From assembly GCF_023702675.1 (NCBI RefSeq), contig NZ_CP098478.1:3100001-3164000 (forward strand): a stretch of DNA of 64,000 nt, read 5' to 3'. Below the pieces are notes generated by a model. It was not told the DNA's origin. It ran no database searches and saw only the letters and a list, made by a program, of their open reading frames with translations. The DNA is from Acinetobacter sp. C26M (GTDB lineage Bacteria > Pseudomonadota > Gammaproteobacteria > Pseudomonadales > Moraxellaceae). Below are positions 33,900-40,180 of the stretch, piece by piece. A program made the translations under genes and the position numbers. Within the stretch, counting starts at the first letter, position 1, and each line of letters opens with the position of its first letter.

Positions 33900-34639
33900 G
33901 TGACAAGAAAGTAATGATAGACCTCCAAAATGTCAGTAAATGGTATGAACAATTTCAGGTACTCACTGAATGTAGTACTCAAATCTGTCAAGGTGAAGTT
34001 GTCGTGGTCTGTGGCCCATCTGGTTCGGGAAAATCAACCCTGATTAAAACCGTAAACGGGCTAGAACCATTTCAACAAGGTAAAATCTTTGTCGATGGCG
34101 TGCCAGTTCATGAACCCAAAACAGATATGACTAAGCTACGCAGTCGTGTCGGTATGGTGTTCCAGCACTTTGAACTATTTCCACACTTGAGTATTACCGA
34201 AAATCTCACTATTGCACAAATCAAAGTGCTTGGTCGTTCAGAAGCGGAAGCAAATAAAAAGGGACTGGCTTATCTAGATCGTGTCGGTCTGAGCGCCCAT
34301 GCAAATAAATACCCTGCTCAGCTTTCAGGTGGACAGCAACAGCGCGTTGCGATTGCGCGTGCCCTTAGTATGGATCCGATTGCCATGCTATTTGATGAGC
34401 CAACTTCTGCGCTTGACCCCGAAATGATCAATGAAGTACTGGACGTGATGGTCGGACTGGCCAAAGAAGGCATGACCATGATGTGTGTCACCCATGAAAT
34501 GGGCTTTGCCCGGCAGGTAGCCAATCGCATTATTTTCATGGATCAAGGAAAAATTGTAGAAGACTGTTCCAAAGATGAATTTTTTGGTTCACCACGTGGA
34601 GAACGTGCCCAGCAATTTTTGGATAAAATTCTGCATTAA
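33896..34639 (+). CDS. gltL: Glutamate/aspartate ABC transporter, ATPase GltL
   Basis: A 247-residue amino-acid-type ABC ATPase. Walker A is GPSGSGKST, the Q-loop region is MVFQHFELFPHLS, the signature is LSGGQQQRVAIARAL, Walker B is AMLFDEPTSALDP, and the switch His follows in CVTHEMGFA. It drives uptake through GltJ-GltK. Overlap with gltK by four bases indicates coupled translation. A hairpin follows the stop. Confidence 0.93.
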   Translation: MSDKKVMIDLQNVSKWYEQFQVLTECSTQICQGEVVVVCGPSGSGKSTLIKTVNGLEPFQQGKIFVDGVPVHEPKTDMTKLRSRVGMVFQHFELFPHLSITENLTIAQIKVLGRSEAEANKKGLAYLDRVGLSAHANKYPAQLSGGQQQRVAIARALSMDPIAMLFDEPTSALDPEMINEVLDVMVGLAKEGMTMMCVTHEMGFARQVANRIIFMDQGKIVEDCSKDEFFGSPRGERAQQFLDKILH

Positions 34640-34655
34640 TTTTTTCATGTTACAC

Positions 34656-34689
34656 CAGCATAAAGCAGCCTTTTGGCTGCTGTATGCTG
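34656..34689 (+). terminator. Hairpin terminator after gltL
   Basis: The outer arms CAGCATA/TATGCTG and the inner GCAGCC/GGCTGC form a long stem with a TTTT loop. It lies 16 bases after the gltL stop. There is no T-run, so termination may be partial. Confidence 0.65.
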
Positions 34690-34744
34690 AAAATCCTACA
34701 AAATAAATCACCTATCTTATTTTCCAATAATTACCTTTCGCTCT

Positions 34745-34772
34745 TTTAAGACTCATTTAAGAGCCAATTAAG
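34745..34772 (+). promoter_or_regulatory. Three tandem PmrA-box-like hexamers upstream of the PAP2 gene
   Basis: TTTAAG (34745-34750), TTTAAG (34756-34761) and ATTAAG (34767-34772) repeat with an exact 11-base period, each separated by five bases. The PmrA box of enteric and Acinetobacter response regulators is a direct repeat HTTAAD-N5-HTTAAD, so this array contains two overlapping boxes. It ends 51 bases before the PAP2 start codon, the same distance as the box in front of pmrC. A -10-like TAATCT follows at 34788. Regulation by PmrA is inferred. Confidence 0.7.
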
Positions 34773-34823
34773 CTTCTCCGCATTAAATAATCTAACCATC
34801 ATCTAGCCCTAACAGCCAGTTCC

Positions 34824-35540
34824 ATGATTCAGAAAACACCCTTTTTTTTATGGCTGAGTTTTTTACTTTTTATCAGTTTTTTCATTTTGTTATGGGTGTT
34901 TCCTGTAGGTGGAACAATTGACTTAAACCTGATTCAACCGTGGGTTAGTCAACATGGTAGCTTCCCTTATAAAAATGATTGGTTTCTCGATAAGCTGAAT
35001 CATACTTACGTCAAACAACTTTTAACGCTTGTTTATGTGGCTTTTTTCTTTTTGTGGTGTGCTTCTTTTAAAATTGAAAAACTGAAATCGAATCGTTGGC
35101 AATATGGCTATATGTTTTGGGTCAGTATGCTCTGCACCTGTATTGTCGGATTACTCAAAGCACATTCTACCCAAGCCTGCCCATGGTATATGACTCATGC
35201 AACGACTACAGGTTTTGTTTGGGATTTCTCTGCAACCGAAGGACATTGTTTCCCTGGCGGACATGCCAGTACAGGCTTTGCGCTGATTACAGGATTCTTT
35301 GCCTATCGCTTACATCAAACACAACGTGCTTGGTTTTATCTGATTGCAGGTATAACCCTAGGCTTTGCCATGGGTTGGGCCCAAATGATGCGTGGTGCTC
35401 ATTTCCTAAGTCATAATCTTTGGACCGCTTGGGTTTGTTTTGTGATTAATTTACTCTGTTATGCATTGACTTATCAGCATCATCAAGCAGTTGCAAATCG
35501 TAATTCTGTACCTTTCCCGACGCCTGATGTGGTAAAGTGA
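34824..35540 (+). CDS. PAP2-family phosphatase of the polymyxin locus
   Basis: A 238-residue inner-membrane protein with about six helices. Motifs: K-x6-PW (KAHSTQACPW) in place of the usual K-x6-RP, CFPGGHAS with the base His, and RGAHFLSHNLW with the nucleophile His. This variant form is seen in lipid-linked and lipid A phosphatases. The substrate is unproven; lipid A or undecaprenyl-type phosphates are reasonable guesses because it lies beside pmrCAB. PmrA-box-like repeats upstream suggest induction together with pmrCAB. The kinase-like gene follows 61 bases downstream on the same strand. Confidence 0.85.
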   Translation: MIQKTPFFLWLSFLLFISFFILLWVFPVGGTIDLNLIQPWVSQHGSFPYKNDWFLDKLNHTYVKQLLTLVYVAFFFLWCASFKIEKLKSNRWQYGYMFWVSMLCTCIVGLLKAHSTQACPWYMTHATTTGFVWDFSATEGHCFPGGHASTGFALITGFFAYRLHQTQRAWFYLIAGITLGFAMGWAQMMRGAHFLSHNLWTAWVCFVINLLCYALTYQHHQAVANRNSVPFPTPDVVK

Positions 35541-35601
35541 ACGCCCGTGCTCATAGAACGAGTACGTTTGACACTCACATTAGGATTATTTTTGCTGCCG
35601 T

Positions 35602-36411
35602 ATGTCTGACTATCAAACGTTTTTAGAATCCACTTTAACGACCCAATCTGACTCTATTCAATCTTATGAATTAGATTCACGAAAAGTATGGCTTAAAAAA
35701 GCATCTGAACGTCATGGTTTATGGTTATATACTCCATTGAAATGGTTAGCTAAAATATTTAACTTAGGTTCAATCACGCCTGTTCCAAATCAAGGTGGAT
35801 CAACCGCAATCCAATGTGAGTTTAAGCGCATCCAACAGCTTAAAGCTCTAGGCATTTCTACACCAAATGTATTAGCTATCTCTAAAAAAGGCATTTTATT
35901 GGAGGATGTTGGTTCACAGCGCCAGAGCCCTGTCAGTCAACTTGATCAAAAGTTAGGAAGCTTGAAAGATCATCCTGAACAACAGTTTCAATTATTTCAT
36001 CAAGCAATTCAATCGATTAGTCAATTACATCAACAACAAGGATATTTGAGCGAAGCCTTTGCTCGGAATATTTTGGTTGATCAAGAAAATCATTTTACTT
36101 TTATTGATTTTGAAACCGATCCTCGTGATGTTCTGAGCCTACATGATTGCTTTGTGCGCGATTGGTTACTGTTTATCTTTTCAACTGCTTATCATTTTGA
36201 ATTCGAACAACTTGAGCAAGCCAGCCACCAACTCTATCAAGCTTTATTAGATGAAATACAAGTCTATAAAGATATTTGCAAAGTCGGTAAGCGCCTGAAT
36301 TGGGTATTACGCTTTAATGTCAGTAAAGTGGGCAATGATGGCAAACGTATTCAAAAATGTGTGCTGTTTCTGCGTTATCTCAAAGAACAAGCAGAACGTA
36401 GCAATGGTTAA
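35602..36411 (+). CDS. Kinase-like protein (LPS/BUD32-type fold) with an altered catalytic loop
   Basis: A 269-residue soluble protein with the outline of the bacterial sugar/LPS kinase group. The N-lobe contains SRKVWLKKASE (a lysine where ATP-binding is expected) and GILLEDVG. The C-lobe has SEAFARNILVDQ and FIDFETDP, which correspond to the HGDxxxxN and DFG-like motifs of aminoglycoside/LPS kinases. The catalytic Asp appears replaced by Glu and the preceding His-Gly by Leu-Ser, so activity is uncertain. It is probably cotranscribed with the PAP2 gene and converges with pmrB. A role in lipid A or LOS modification is inferred from location. Confidence 0.75.
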   Translation: MSDYQTFLESTLTTQSDSIQSYELDSRKVWLKKASERHGLWLYTPLKWLAKIFNLGSITPVPNQGGSTAIQCEFKRIQQLKALGISTPNVLAISKKGILLEDVGSQRQSPVSQLDQKLGSLKDHPEQQFQLFHQAIQSISQLHQQQGYLSEAFARNILVDQENHFTFIDFETDPRDVLSLHDCFVRDWLLFIFSTAYHFEFEQLEQASHQLYQALLDEIQVYKDICKVGKRLNWVLRFNVSKVGNDGKRIQKCVLFLRYLKEQAERSNG

Positions 36412-36430
36412 TGGTACTTTTGCTCATTAT

Positions 36431-37777
36431 TTAATGTAGCTCATGATGGGCAAGTTTTTTTGGCAATTTGACCAACACACTTAAACCACCTAATTCAATA
36501 CTTCGAGATAAAGTTAAAATCCCACCCAAACGCTGAGTGGCTTTGTCTACAATCGAAAGTCCAAGTCCACTCCCCACTTCTAAGTGATGATGTACGCGAT
36601 AAAAACGTTTGAGCACTTTGTCATATTGTTCAGGATCAATCCCCGTACCACTGTCTTCAATTTGGACATAGGCAAAATTATCGGTATCGCTATACACTGA
36701 AATATTGATAACACCTTGGCTTGGGGTGTACTTAATTGCATTATCAATTAAGTTAAAGATAATCGAATGCACGGTTGATTCGAGGCTCTGCATTTCAATC
36801 GGCTCATTGCGTTCGAAACCTAAGTCAATTTCCTTTTGCATGGCCAAATTCACCAATTGCTCAACACAATTGAGTGCAACATCATTTAATCTGAAGTTTG
36901 TATTGGGTTCAATCAGACTCAGAGCAACATCCTGTTTAGCCAATGCCAAAAGCTGAGTGACTAAATGTTGAATACGGGCTAAACCTTTACTCAGATTTTG
37001 CAAAGCCTCATGTTCTGGAAACTGACTCATCAGAATTCTGGTCTGTAAATTCAGCGCAGTCACAGGTGTTCTAAGTTCATGTGCGGCATCGGCAATAAAT
37101 TGCTTTTGTTCAGTCTGAGCATGCTGAATGCGTTCAAATAGACGATTCATTTCTTCAATGGTTGGCAACAGTTCTTGCGGATAATCTTTAACATTGATAG
37201 GCGACAAGCCATCCGAATCACGCTGCGTAAGTTCCTCTTTAAAATCATCTAAAGGCTTTAAACTCAAACTGATAATAAAGGCCAGAACTAAAATCGCAAT
37301 CGGTAATAGGAGTAGATAAGGAACAAACATACTCCCAGCCAATTCCCAAGCAAAGGCATGGCGAACCTCTTCTTGCTGGCTGACCTGAATCTGATAATCT
37401 TTTAATGGGATCACATAAACACGCCATTTTCCTTGCGGTGTGTTCTGGGTATAAAAACCTGCTTGCTTCACAGGAGGGACTAAAAGATGTGTCTGATGCC
37501 ATAAATGGCTTTGATCTTTATAAGCCCAGATATCAATCAGCAAATCTTCTTCGTGATAAGCTCGATGTAACTCCACGCGACTCGCCATAGGAGTTACAGG
37601 ATGAGAGCTTGAACGTTCCGCCATATACTGCATTTGGGTATCTAAAATTTCATCGACCTCATGCAATGAAATTTTATATGCGGCTAAAATCAAAAAACAG
37701 CCCAGTACAATACTGAAAATGGAAGTGCCCCAAATCAGTCTTTTCTTGAGCGAATAATGCTGAGCTGTTTTCATCAA
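36431..37777 (-). CDS. pmrB: PmrB, sensor histidine kinase of the polymyxin response
   Basis: A 448-residue membrane kinase. It has an N-terminal helix (about residues 14-35), a periplasmic loop rich in His, Asp and Glu (to about 145), a second helix (about 150-172), a HAMP-like linker, the H-box AAHELRTP (His233 phospho-acceptor) and the ATPase domain (FNLIDNAIKYTP; DSGTGIDPEQ; GSGLGLSIV). Family knowledge: in A. baumannii PmrB phosphorylates PmrA, and mutations here raise polymyxin resistance. It starts one base after the PmrA stop. Its N terminus carries a few extra residues (MMKTAQ) before HYSLKKRL, so a later start is possible. Confidence 0.93.
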   Translation of the reverse strand: MMKTAQHYSLKKRLIWGTSIFSIVLGCFLILAAYKISLHEVDEILDTQMQYMAERSSSHPVTPMASRVELHRAYHEEDLLIDIWAYKDQSHLWHQTHLLVPPVKQAGFYTQNTPQGKWRVYVIPLKDYQIQVSQQEEVRHAFAWELAGSMFVPYLLLLPIAILVLAFIISLSLKPLDDFKEELTQRDSDGLSPINVKDYPQELLPTIEEMNRLFERIQHAQTEQKQFIADAAHELRTPVTALNLQTRILMSQFPEHEALQNLSKGLARIQHLVTQLLALAKQDVALSLIEPNTNFRLNDVALNCVEQLVNLAMQKEIDLGFERNEPIEMQSLESTVHSIIFNLIDNAIKYTPSQGVINISVYSDTDNFAYVQIEDSGTGIDPEQYDKVLKRFYRVHHHLEVGSGLGLSIVDKATQRLGGILTLSRSIELGGLSVLVKLPKKLAHHELH

Positions 37778-37778
37778 T

Positions 37779-38456
37779 TTAAGCTTGCCCCAAACGATAA
37801 CCTAAACCACGAATCGTACGAATAAAGTCTTTCCCAAGTTTGGCACGCAAGTGGTGTACATAGACTTCAATGGTATTACTGGTCACTTCACTATCAAAAT
37901 CATACAACTTATCTTCAAGATTGGCTTTCGAGAAAATTTTGTTTGGATGAGAAACCATTGGAATCAGAATCGCCCACTCTCGATTAGAAAGTTCGATCTG
38001 TTGTCCTTTAAAAGTCGCCAAGTGTTGTTCAACATCTAATGTCAACTCGCCACTTTTTAACAATTGCGACTGACTTTTCAATTGTGCTGTTTCTACACTA
38101 CCGCGGCGCAACAAGGCATTGATTCGTGCAAGTAGTTCATCAAACTCATAAGGCTTGATCAGATAATCATCCGCACCTTGATTTAAACCATCAACACGGT
38201 TTTGTAACTGGTCACGCGCAGAGATAATCAATACAGGCACAGTACTACGTTGACGAATTTGCTTGAGAATTTGCATTCCATCCATTAAAGGAAGACCCAA
38301 ATCCAACAGAACCAAATCAAAAGCCTGCTTGGTCAGCAAAGCTAATCCATCTACCCCATTGTTGACCCATTCCACTTCAAACTGATGATATCGCAATAAA
38401 GTCAATGTAGACTCTGCAATCATAAAATCATCTTCTATCATCAAGATCTTGGTCAT
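37779..38456 (-). CDS. pmrA: PmrA, response regulator of the polymyxin response
   Basis: A 225-residue OmpR-type regulator. The receiver domain (residues 1-120) has the acidic pocket IEDD, the phospho-acceptor Asp52 in LVLLDLGLP and the KPY lysine in IKPYEFDEL. The C-terminal winged helix (residues 130-222) ends in TSNTIEVYVHHLRAKLGKDFIRTIRGLGYRLG. It activates pmrC and its own operon. The site at 40164-40180 matches its known direct-repeat target. An AAGGTGAAG ribosome site supports ATG 38456. Confidence 0.95.
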   Translation of the reverse strand: MTKILMIEDDFMIAESTLTLLRYHQFEVEWVNNGVDGLALLTKQAFDLVLLDLGLPLMDGMQILKQIRQRSTVPVLIISARDQLQNRVDGLNQGADDYLIKPYEFDELLARINALLRRGSVETAQLKSQSQLLKSGELTLDVEQHLATFKGQQIELSNREWAILIPMVSHPNKIFSKANLEDKLYDFDSEVTSNTIEVYVHHLRAKLGKDFIRTIRGLGYRLGQA

Positions 38457-38470
38457 GATTTCACTTCACC

Positions 38471-40114
38471 TTATGGCTTAGGACATGTTTGCAACATGTC
38501 ATCTTTAGGATTAATTACTTTAGTTTTAATATCAAGCAAACTGAGCATGGTTGGGAATAAATTATCCTGACTGAGTTTATTTTTACTTTGTTGTGCTAAG
38601 CATTTGATTTGCTTGCTTGCCTGTTGCTGCCATACACTAGAAAACCACATCAACATCGGAACATGTGTCTGTTGGCTCGGTGCAATCGCATAAGGCGCGC
38701 CATGCAAATACATACCACTTTCACCCGTTGATTCACCATGATCAGATAAATACCACAAACCTGTTTGATATTGCGTAGTATTTTTTAATGTATTGATCAA
38801 TGAATCTAGAACATAATCAGTATAAAGCAAGGTATTGTCATAAGTATTGATTAAAGCTTCTTGAGTGCATCCCTGAATCGCATTGGTATCACACGTTGGC
38901 TTAAACACACGAAACTCCTCAGGTGCACGTTTATAGTAAGCTGGGCCATGACTCCCCATTTGGTGCAAGACCACCAATTGCGGACGTTTATCATCTTTTG
39001 GAATCGTTTCGAGATAAGCTTTCAGGCTATCAATCAAAATGTCGTCCAGACATTCACCATCCTTACACCATTTCTGCTTGATTGATTCTGGAATTTTATA
39101 TTCTCCAATCCGATCACATGTCCCCTTACAACTTGAATTGTTATCAATCCAAGTGACTTGGTAACCCACACGTTTTGCAATATCCAGTAGCCCTTCTCTA
39201 TGGCTAGCCAACCGCTCATCATAATCCACCCTTTGCATACCTGAGAACATACACGGTACGGACACTGCCGTTGCTGTACCACATGAGCTAACCTGAGAGA
39301 AATTCAAAATATCTTGTTTAGCTAACTTAGGATTGGTCTCTTTTGCATAACCATTCAAAGAAAAATTTTCTGCACGTGCTGTTTCACCTACCACCAAAAC
39401 CATCAGTTTAGGTACACCTTTTGGAGTTTGAGAAACTTGTGCATCTTCACCGTAATGCACCAGAGGTAAATTCTCTTTAGGTGCTTTCTTTTTATAATAA
39501 GATACCGATGCAGCAATCATATTTTGCGGGGAAATCATCCCTTTCAAATCACGATTTTCACGAAAGATTGCAGCAAAATCGACATAGAAAATAAATAGTA
39601 AACCACCTACCATTGCCAAAGAAACCAGTGAAGCCACCACTTTTTTCCATATTTGTCGAATAATCGGTTCAGGTTTTAATTTAATTAGCAAAATCACAAT
39701 AATTGGTACAATCACCATACCAATGATCCAAACCAGCAAATGCCAAGACCATGTATCCTTTGCTTCAGCTATATCCGTTTGCATCAGATTTTGAATTTGG
39801 TCAGCAGTAATCCAAACGCCTAGAGTGTTCACCGCATAGGCTGCAAAACCACCAATAAATATCAAAGCAATTGCAATTGGCTTTGCCGTCCATTTCCAAT
39901 TTAAAATCTGTAACGCAAATAAATACAAGGCTGTCACGACACCCACTGAAGCAACCACAAATAGCCCAGCCTTAAGTCCTGTATAAGGCGTTAATGCTTG
40001 CATCTTTTGATAAAATGCAATATTCAGAAATACACCCAACCAAATTGCAAGTAGCACATTGAAGGTCAGAAGTGAAATCGATCTAGGCATGGCTTTTTGT
40101 AGCAACATAGGCAT
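38471..40114 (-). CDS. pmrC: PmrC (EptA-like), lipid A phosphoethanolamine transferase
   Basis: About 547 residues. Five N-terminal membrane helices (residues about 15-180) are followed by a periplasmic sulfatase-fold catalytic domain. The metal-binding nucleophile Thr lies in VVGETARAENFSLNGY, and the other zinc ligands in WLSDHGESTGESGMYLHG. It adds phosphoethanolamine to lipid A, lowering polymyxin binding. It is the first gene of the operon pmrC-pmrA-pmrB with only 14 bases to pmrA. ATG 40114 is chosen; a GTG lies one codon upstream. The predicted PmrA box ends 50 bases before the start. Confidence 0.95.
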   Translation of the reverse strand: MPMLLQKAMPRSISLLTFNVLLAIWLGVFLNIAFYQKMQALTPYTGLKAGLFVVASVGVVTALYLFALQILNWKWTAKPIAIALIFIGGFAAYAVNTLGVWITADQIQNLMQTDIAEAKDTWSWHLLVWIIGMVIVPIIVILLIKLKPEPIIRQIWKKVVASLVSLAMVGGLLFIFYVDFAAIFRENRDLKGMISPQNMIAASVSYYKKKAPKENLPLVHYGEDAQVSQTPKGVPKLMVLVVGETARAENFSLNGYAKETNPKLAKQDILNFSQVSSCGTATAVSVPCMFSGMQRVDYDERLASHREGLLDIAKRVGYQVTWIDNNSSCKGTCDRIGEYKIPESIKQKWCKDGECLDDILIDSLKAYLETIPKDDKRPQLVVLHQMGSHGPAYYKRAPEEFRVFKPTCDTNAIQGCTQEALINTYDNTLLYTDYVLDSLINTLKNTTQYQTGLWYLSDHGESTGESGMYLHGAPYAIAPSQQTHVPMLMWFSSVWQQQASKQIKCLAQQSKNKLSQDNLFPTMLSLLDIKTKVINPKDDMLQTCPKP

Positions 40115-40163
40115 CACAGTCTAAAAATAATTTTCTTTGCTTTTTTTAAAATAAGAATAAAAA

Positions 40164-40180
40164 CTTAAAAATCACTTAAA
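40164..40180 (-). promoter_or_regulatory. PmrA-box-like direct repeat upstream of pmrC
   Basis: On the minus strand TTTAAG-TGATT-TTTAAG is a perfect direct repeat with five-base spacing, fitting HTTAAD-N5-HTTAAD. It lies 50 bases before pmrC, so the operon is probably under its own PmrA product (autoregulation). Confidence 0.75.

What the first reader, a model, noticed from the sequence alone, without database searches (positions are those of the whole stretch)
34745..34772. Triple PmrA-box array predicts that a PAP2 phosphatase/kinase-like pair belongs to the PmrAB regulon
Three TTAAG-type hexamers with an exact 11-base period stand 51 bases before the PAP2 gene. The same arrangement, two hexamers, lies 50 bases before pmrC. 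The direct repeats and spacing are seen in the sequence; the match to the PmrA box is family knowledge. If right, polymyxin response would induce a lipid phosphatase and a degenerate kinase along with phosphoethanolamine transfer, a possible unreported step in lipid A or LOS remodelling.
Basis: partly seen in the sequence, partly recalled or inferred. Interest (0 to 1): 0.75.

Follow-up and report, generated by a model that had tools for sequence, protein, structure and literature searches.

The report
PmrA switch for a lipid phosphatase
In Acinetobacter bacteria, the DNA switch that turns on a known polymyxin-response gene also stands in front of a neighbouring gene for a membrane lipid phosphatase, and it has been kept there in most species examined, so that enzyme is very probably part of the same response.

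Summary
The hexamers are real: TTTAAG, TTTAAG, ATTAAG at 34745-34772, 11-base period, 51 bases before the PAP2 start. The PmrA-box reading is strongly supported by comparison; no binding or expression data were seen. Of 141 Acinetobacter genomes with a PAP2 match, 94 have a strict PmrA box before it, 18 before dgkA in a dgkA-PAP2 operon, and 8 more miss by one letter; other ORFs of these loci show 21 of 225, the proven target pmrC 92 of 109. The box is kept in three genomes where PAP2 lies away from pmrAB, occurs in two A. baumannii records and in three genomes of another genus, and is absent from the 14 loci whose regulator has an EVH-type recognition helix. The conserved unit is two hexamers plus a -10 element. 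A third phased hexamer recurs at PAP2 (17 of 112), rarely at pmrC (2 of 92). The kinase half of the claim is weak: it is mostly a pmrB neighbour, and has no strong box where PAP2 is not beside it. PAP2 shares the altered catalytic motif of mcr-1-linked hPAP2. Verdict: new member of a known kind of regulon; substrate unknown.

The parts
34656..34689 (+). Strong hairpin after the ABC-transporter operon, ahead of the PAP2 promoter
   Evidence: -24.6 kcal/mol, z -6.66 for 46 nt; no T run follows and one search did not list it as terminator-like, so terminator function is inferred
34745..34750 (+). Distal third hexamer TTTAAG, in 11-base phase
   Evidence: offset -11 carries a hexamer in 17 of 112 boxed loci against 0-4 at 34 other offsets
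34756..34772 (+). Core PmrA box TTTAAG-N5-ATTAAG
   Evidence: TTAA cores invariant over the strict sites (by the search pattern), final G at 0.93 and 0.99, spacer variable
34783..34788 (+). -10 element TTAAAT, 10 bases after hexamer 2
   Evidence: columns 28, 31, 32, 33 at 0.95, 0.83, 0.85, 0.99 over 107 distinct sites; for the sequence
34824..35540 (+). PAP2-family membrane phosphatase (238 aa)
   Evidence: PF01569, 50.2 bits (cut-off 27.2); motif; model, pLDDT 90.7
35602..36411 (+). Kinase-like protein of the Bud32/WaaP/RIO group, 61 bases after PAP2; probable read-through passenger
   Evidence: PF06293, 25.6 bits (cut-off 21.3)
36431..37777 (-). pmrB sensor kinase, convergent
   Evidence: best-fitting names QseC and PmrB, below their cut-offs; place beside pmrA and pmrC
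37779..38456 (-). pmrA response regulator
   Evidence: (best model PmrA, 200 bits, cut-off 330)
38471..40117 (-). pmrC (eptA) phosphoethanolamine-lipid A transferase
   Evidence: NF028537, 691 bits (cut-off 500)
40164..40180 (-). pmrC PmrA box TTTAAG-N5-TTTAAG (reference site)

Best explanation
34745-34788 is a PmrA-activated promoter of the PAP2 gene. Phosphorylated PmrA binds the two proximal hexamers as a tandem dimer and recruits RNA polymerase at the -10 element ten bases downstream; the third hexamer extends the array and may hold a further PmrA subunit. PAP2 is thus switched on together with pmrC. In this species the kinase-like gene 61 bases downstream is probably carried along by read-through but is not a conserved target. 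Shown here: the sequence pattern, its conservation, and that it goes with PAP2 or its operon. Inferred from A. baumannii PmrA work: binding and activation. Inferred with low confidence (about 0.35): PAP2 acts on the periplasmic side on a lipid phosphate that arises with, or competes with, phosphoethanolamine transfer (for example lipid A with an extra phosphate, or a lipid by-product of PmrC).
For: Strict box at PAP2 in 94 and at dgkA-PAP2 in 18 of 141 genomes; 8 of the other 29 miss by one letter; against 21 of 225 other mechanical ORFs and 92 of 109 pmrC promoters (windows 120 bases before the start, plus 20 after for PAP2 and dgkA and 60 after for pmrC). Spacer 0.14-0.46 bits a column, while the final G of the hexamers and the -10 are conserved. 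Box kept where no pmr gene lies in the fetched stretch: L155, L183, L227. Box and PAP2 missing together in L258-L263. Box in A. baumannii X4-300 and 2021CK-01407. Box in L298-L300 of another genus. Same recognition helix as A. baumannii PmrA; the 14 loci with an EVH-type helix lack the box. No consensus sigma-70 promoter on the plus strand in 34560-36500.
Against: No binding or expression data were seen. The 21-gene Pmr regulon of PMC5340874 is not listed in the text I could search; PAP2 could be absent from it. A1S_2749, annotated PAP2 in A. baumannii, was 3.0-fold lower with mucin and is listed with phosphate-metabolism genes (PMC5757984, passages), while A1S_2750, 2751 and 2752 do not occur in that text, so another input may exist. 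The helix link is not perfect: L222 has another changed helix (EVYIHKLRQKL) and a box, L215 (EVYIHRIRSKL) has none, and the 14 EVH loci also have distant PAP2 (34-40%), so ancestry could explain both. dgkA in this genome has no strict box.
Confidence: 0.83

Rival explanations
1. The site is a PmrA box inherited with the pmr neighbourhood and has no present role at PAP2.
For: PAP2 is beside pmrB in most loci, so linkage could carry the promoter along.
Against: Spacers and flanks have diverged while the boxes have not; the box persists in L155, L183 and L227, where PAP2 lies away from pmrAB, and stands before dgkA where dgkA leads the PAP2 operon.
Confidence: 0.05
2. The array is bound by a different OmpR/PhoB-family regulator (for example a phosphate or envelope-stress regulator) with a similar direct-repeat site.
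For: 11-base direct repeats are typical of that family (recalled); A1S_2749 fell with phosphate genes under mucin.
Against: The hexamer is the A. baumannii PmrA site shown at pmrC and naxD, exact in the A. baumannii records, and its presence goes with the PmrA recognition-helix type in most loci.
Confidence: 0.08
3. PAP2 and kinase are one functional pair, both selected as PmrA targets.
For: 61-base gap; in L183 the pair stays together, with a box, away from pmrA.
Against: Kinase beside PAP2 in 31 of 141; 20 of the 26 other kinase loci are beside pmrB with no PAP2 in the fetched stretch, and none of the 26 has a strong box before the kinase.
Confidence: 0.2
4. The hexamers are chance in AT-rich DNA.
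For: 21 of 225 other mechanical ORFs also have a strict pair in 120 bases; one-mismatch pairs are not enriched genome-wide.
Against: 112 of 141 at PAP2 or dgkA-PAP2; at PAP2 42-73 bases before the start and followed by a conserved -10.
Confidence: 0.01

Closest known systems
A. baumannii PmrA box at pmrC and naxD (PMC10927774, abstract and passages; PMC12654582, passages)
   Same: Hexamer, 5-base gap, direct-repeat orientation, regulator recognition helix
   Different: Downstream gene is PAP2; extra phased hexamer; binding not tested here
mcr-1-hpap2 cassette (PMC7559476, part 1 of 5 and passages; PMC10285318, passages)
   Same: PAP2 paired with a phosphoethanolamine-lipid A transferase; KX6CP and GxHFLSH motifs. 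[quoted passage not shown]
   Different: About 28% identity; own PmrA-type promoter instead of a place behind the transferase; far below the NCBIfam cut-offs
E. coli PmrAB control of ybjG, and dgkA co-regulated with eptA (as stated in PMC7559476)
   Same: A PAP2-family gene under PmrA
   Different: YbjG is described there as an undecaprenyl-pyrophosphate phosphatase with the canonical triad; this PAP2 has His in place of the third-motif Asp
Pseudomonas putida ColRS regulon (PMC2689224, passages)
   Same: Two-component system that activates a PAP2 gene (PP0900) and dgkA (PP1636) and regulates the PP0903 operon, which holds the InaA kinase PP0904
   Different: Different regulator and binding consensus; homology of its PAP2 and kinase to these was not tested here
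P. aeruginosa PhoP-regulated papP (PMC7916210, passages)
   Same: PAP2-domain gene in a polymyxin-tolerance regulon; its deletion increased outer-membrane damage
   Different: PhoPQ instead of PmrAB; homology not tested here

Membership tests
PmrA-box promoter of Acinetobacter | HTTAAD-N5-HTTAAD direct repeat upstream of the gene | tested here: met
PmrA-box promoter of Acinetobacter | Conserved at that place across species, like pmrC | tested here: met
   112 of 141 against 92 of 109 for pmrC
PmrA-box promoter of Acinetobacter | Regulator with the same recognition helix present | tested here: met
   NTIEVYVHHLRAKL in window and A. baumannii
PmrA-box promoter of Acinetobacter | PmrA binds the site; PmrA-dependent expression | not testable with these tools
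   needs gel shift and transcript measurement
mcr-1-linked hPAP2 | NCBIfam NF028536 / NF028538 curated cut-off | tested here: not met
   43.6 of 475 and 42.7 of 275 bits
mcr-1-linked hPAP2 | Altered motif: Cys before the first-motif Pro, third-motif Asp missing | tested here: met
   C119 and H197 invariant in 36; mcr-1 hPAP2 reads KAYTHVVCP and GDHFLSH; this genome's other four PAP2 genes (L243-L246) keep the third-motif Asp
LpxE/LpxF lipid A phosphatase | Removes a phosphate from lipid A | not testable with these tools
Kdo/WaaP (InaA) kinase | Pfam PF06293 gathering score | tested here: met
   25.6 bits against 21.3
Kdo/WaaP (InaA) kinase | Catalytic HxD aspartate (motif recalled, placed by eye) | tested here: not met
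   LSE151 invariant in 64 sequences; N156 and D169 kept
3-deoxy-D-manno-octulosonic acid kinase | NCBIfam NF002475 cut-off | tested here: not met
   26.2 of 142 bits

The most novel reading that the evidence does not exclude
PAP2 promoters of Acinetobacter use extended PmrA arrays of three or four phased half-sites, a form rare at pmrC, that set a different activation threshold within one regulon; and the enzyme they control, with its altered catalytic motif, carries out a so far undescribed lipid A or lipid-recycling step coupled to phosphoethanolamine transfer across the genus, A. baumannii included.
Probability: 0.22. Interest if true: 0.7.

Novelty: new member of a known kind. Interest (0 to 1): 0.45.

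Why it matters
It puts a specific, widely conserved gene (in A. baumannii very probably A1S_2749) beside pmrC on the list of PmrA targets to be tested, and joins chromosomal pmrCAB to the mcr-1-hpap2 pairing: in both, a phosphoethanolamine transferase goes with a PAP2 of the same odd motif. What such a PAP2 does for phosphoethanolamine transfer could then be asked with gene deletions in ordinary Acinetobacter strains.

Tried and rejected
Chance (rejected: conservation). Kinase as an independent PmrA target (rejected). Triple as the functional minimum (rejected: 77 of 94 PAP2-side and 18 of 18 dgkA-side strict sites have no third hexamer). dgkA of this genome as a further target (no strict site in its promoter; one match elsewhere in the stretch). 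naxD of this genome (no YdjC match; the E. coli control matched). Sequence search of PAP2 against solved structures (0 matches); of the kinase (only weak matches to distant kinases). In the VIA list no named Kdo kinase other than WaaP appears; absence there proves nothing.

Literature: the listings (titles and starts of abstracts) show no paper on PAP2 as a PmrA target in Acinetobacter. The main texts of nine Acinetobacter PmrAB or colistin papers have no occurrence of 'PAP2'. The library lacks most subscription papers; Chin 2015 and Yamada 2024 are not held, and the regulon list of PMC5340874 was not readable, so a prior description cannot be excluded.

Rows left out: the census used one locus for each of the 141 genomes with a match, some of them fragments or contig ends (for example L152, L217); second copies in G079 and G081 (L209, L196) were fetched and left out, the second in G023 was not fetched, and the second match in G099 (29% identity) was not used. 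Alignment A2 took 36 PAP2 sequences out of those at hand, with several 3' ends cut short; A1 took 35 of 64 kinase sequences; some of the 64 come from the same species. The tree used 137 of 141 PAP2 stretches (170 residues or longer) and gives fewest changes without a shuffle control. The control ORFs are mechanical, some not genes. Of the 12 loci only L298, L299, L300 and L303 were scanned: 3 of 4 have a box. A third A. baumannii record (H1) was not opened.

Full report
Observation. The window lies in a 3.93-Mb one-contig genome of Acinetobacter (from its relatives: nearest named PAP2 locus L064, Acinetobacter sp. NIPH 2100, 90% identity). It carries TTTAAG-N5-TTTAAG-N5-ATTAAG at 34745-34772, 51 bases before the PAP2 ATG at 34824. 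The pmrC site is TTTAAGTGATTTTTAAG, 49 bases before an ATG. Strict pairs number 11 in the window against 1.75 expected. The strict triple is at three places in the genome against one for the reversed control. With one mismatch allowed, pairs are no commoner than the reversed control, so I did not rely on the motif alone.

Setting. Order: ABC-transporter operon, a strong hairpin at 34656-34689, the array, PAP2 (34824-35540), a kinase-like gene (35602-36411), then convergent pmrB, pmrA and pmrC. No consensus sigma-70 promoter was found on the plus strand between 34560 and 36500, which would suit an activator-dependent promoter.

Census. PAP2 has a match in 141 of 175 Acinetobacter genomes. I took one locus for each of the 141 and looked for strict HTTAAD-N5-HTTAAD pairs. 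94 have one before PAP2, 18 before dgkA in a dgkA-PAP2 operon, 1 has dgkA-PAP2 without a box, 28 have none. Eight of the 28 are one-letter near misses with GTTAAG for one hexamer (L133, L139, L141, L148, L152, L164, L178, L182), which leaves 21 with neither. Near the start (120 bases before, plus 20 after for PAP2 and dgkA, 60 after for pmrC) the counts are 112 of 141 for PAP2 or dgkA-PAP2 (104 with HTTAAG in both hexamers), 92 of 109 for pmrC, and, in 120 bases before, 21 of 225 (8 of 225) for other mechanical ORFs in the same loci. All 23 loci with PAP2 identity of 68% or more have a strict pair, 22 at 50-52 bases and L055 at 73.

Anatomy. Over 112 sites (107 distinct) the TTAA cores are invariant by the search pattern, but the free positions tell: final G at 0.93 and 0.99, spacer columns 0.14-0.46 bits, and ten bases after hexamer 2 a TATAAT-like element with T, A, A, T at 0.95, 0.83, 0.85, 0.99. 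In the window it is TTAAAT at 34783-34788.

The box goes with PAP2. In named loci of A. lwoffii, A. schindleri, A. indicus, A. variabilis and A. terrestris dgkA stands before PAP2 and a strict box before dgkA; 18 of the 19 such loci in the census have it. The order dgkA, PAP2, sensor kinase, response regulator, transferase is annotated on an A. variabilis plasmid. In G029 PAP2 lies about 51 kb from pmrA with a triple box; in G149 a PAP2-kinase pair lies far from pmrA on the same contig with a box; in G130 PAP2 (38% identity) is on another contig than the best pmrA match, with a box. In six genomes (L258-L263) the kinase remains between the ABC gene and pmrB while PAP2 and box are missing. In another genus of the family, three genomes (L298-L300) have PAP2 at 44-47% identity, convergent with a PmrB-like gene, and a box about 64-85 bases before it. 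Two chromosome-sized A. baumannii records carry TTTAAGAGCAATTTAAG about 50 bases before PAP2; the A. baumannii gene is very probably A1S_2749, by its PAP2 annotation (PMC5757984, passages) and its tag number beside A1S_2750.

The regulator. The recognition helix NTIEVYVHHLRAKL is identical in the window's PmrA and A. baumannii PmrA; the 14 differences from residue 125 on lie outside it. The A. baumannii receiver domain from L284 matches solved PmrA structures letter for letter over the stretch shown. EMSA and calorimetry showed that PmrA binds TTTAAG-N5-TTTAAG at pmrC and naxD (PMC10927774, abstract and passages). The 14 loci whose regulator has an EVH-type helix and about 50% identity lack the box; in ten of them (L223-L226, L228-L233) PAP2, pmrC and pmrB are on one strand, PAP2 first. 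Against a simple rule: L222, with another changed helix, has a box, and L215 has none; the 14 also have distant PAP2, so ancestry could explain both.

The third hexamer. Measured from the proximal box, a further HTTAAD stands at offset -11 in 17 of 112 loci and at each of 34 other offsets in 0-4; one locus has four hexamers (L175); pmrC has a third in 2 of 92. On a PAP2 tree the trait needs at least 10 changes. So the triple is a recurrent elaboration, not the conserved minimum. Whether it matters is untested.

The kinase. It is found in 57 of 175 genomes, beside PAP2 in 31 of 141. Of 26 other kinase loci, 20 are beside pmrB; none has a strong box in the 500 bases before the kinase, and two have weak AT-rich pairs (L268, L269); L270 has only about 70 bases there. 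It is best seen as a pmrB neighbour that PAP2 transcription may reach in this species.

What is known. E. coli PmrAB controls ybjG, a PAP2-family gene, and dgkA is co-regulated with eptA (as stated in PMC7559476). P. putida ColR activates a PAP2 gene and dgkA (PMC2689224, passages). P. aeruginosa PhoP controls papP (PMC7916210, passages). mcr-1 travels with hpap2 and mcr-3 with dgkA (PMC7559476, PMC10285318). So the kind is known; the Acinetobacter member, its genus-wide box and the dgkA variant were not found in the searches listed under Tried and rejected. A diacylglycerol kinase transcript is listed among those characterising colistin-resistant A. baumannii in one study (PMC6330354, passages).

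Against. No binding or expression result was available. A1S_2749 changed in a mucin experiment whose text does not mention A1S_2750-2752. Shared ancestry inflates simple counts; on the tree, box place needs 12 changes with strict sites and 6 when near misses count as boxes.

Noticed in passing
L286 7497-12330 (A. variabilis plasmid pTB2-2B-1): dgkA, PAP2, sensor kinase, response regulator and phosphoethanolamine-lipid A transferase lie together on a plasmid with transposase genes on both sides: a copy of the whole locus on a mobile replicon.
   Followed up: partly
L223-L226, L228-L233: Distant relatives with PAP2, pmrC and pmrB on one strand, PAP2 first, no strict TTTAAG box and a changed PmrA recognition helix.
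   Followed up: partly
genome positions 1187995, 1705311, 509741, 2839003 (loci L005, L006, L004, L008): Four of the five other places with an exact TTTAAG-N5-HTTAAG site lie before ORFs that look by eye like a TonB-type receptor and an iron-permease-like membrane protein, between a receptor-like ORF and trigger factor, and before a lipoprotein with a repeated domain; conservation not tested.
   Followed up: no
35602-36411 and 63 relatives: Kinase with Glu where the usual catalytic Asp is expected, invariant in 64 sequences; public records give it several different automatic names.
   Followed up: partly
whole genome G000: No YdjC-family (naxD-type) gene was found by profile, so the galactosamine branch known from A. 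baumannii seems absent here.
   Followed up: no
G030 and G142 (L289, L290, L293, L294): Two full pmrC-type genes each: one with a TTTAAG box and no pmr gene in the fetched stretch, and one in a PAP2-pmrC-pmrA-pmrB order without a strict box.
   Followed up: partly
L155 (G029): PAP2 moved about 51 kb from pmrA, between a hydrolase-like gene and a phosphate-transporter-like gene, with a triple box.
   Followed up: partly
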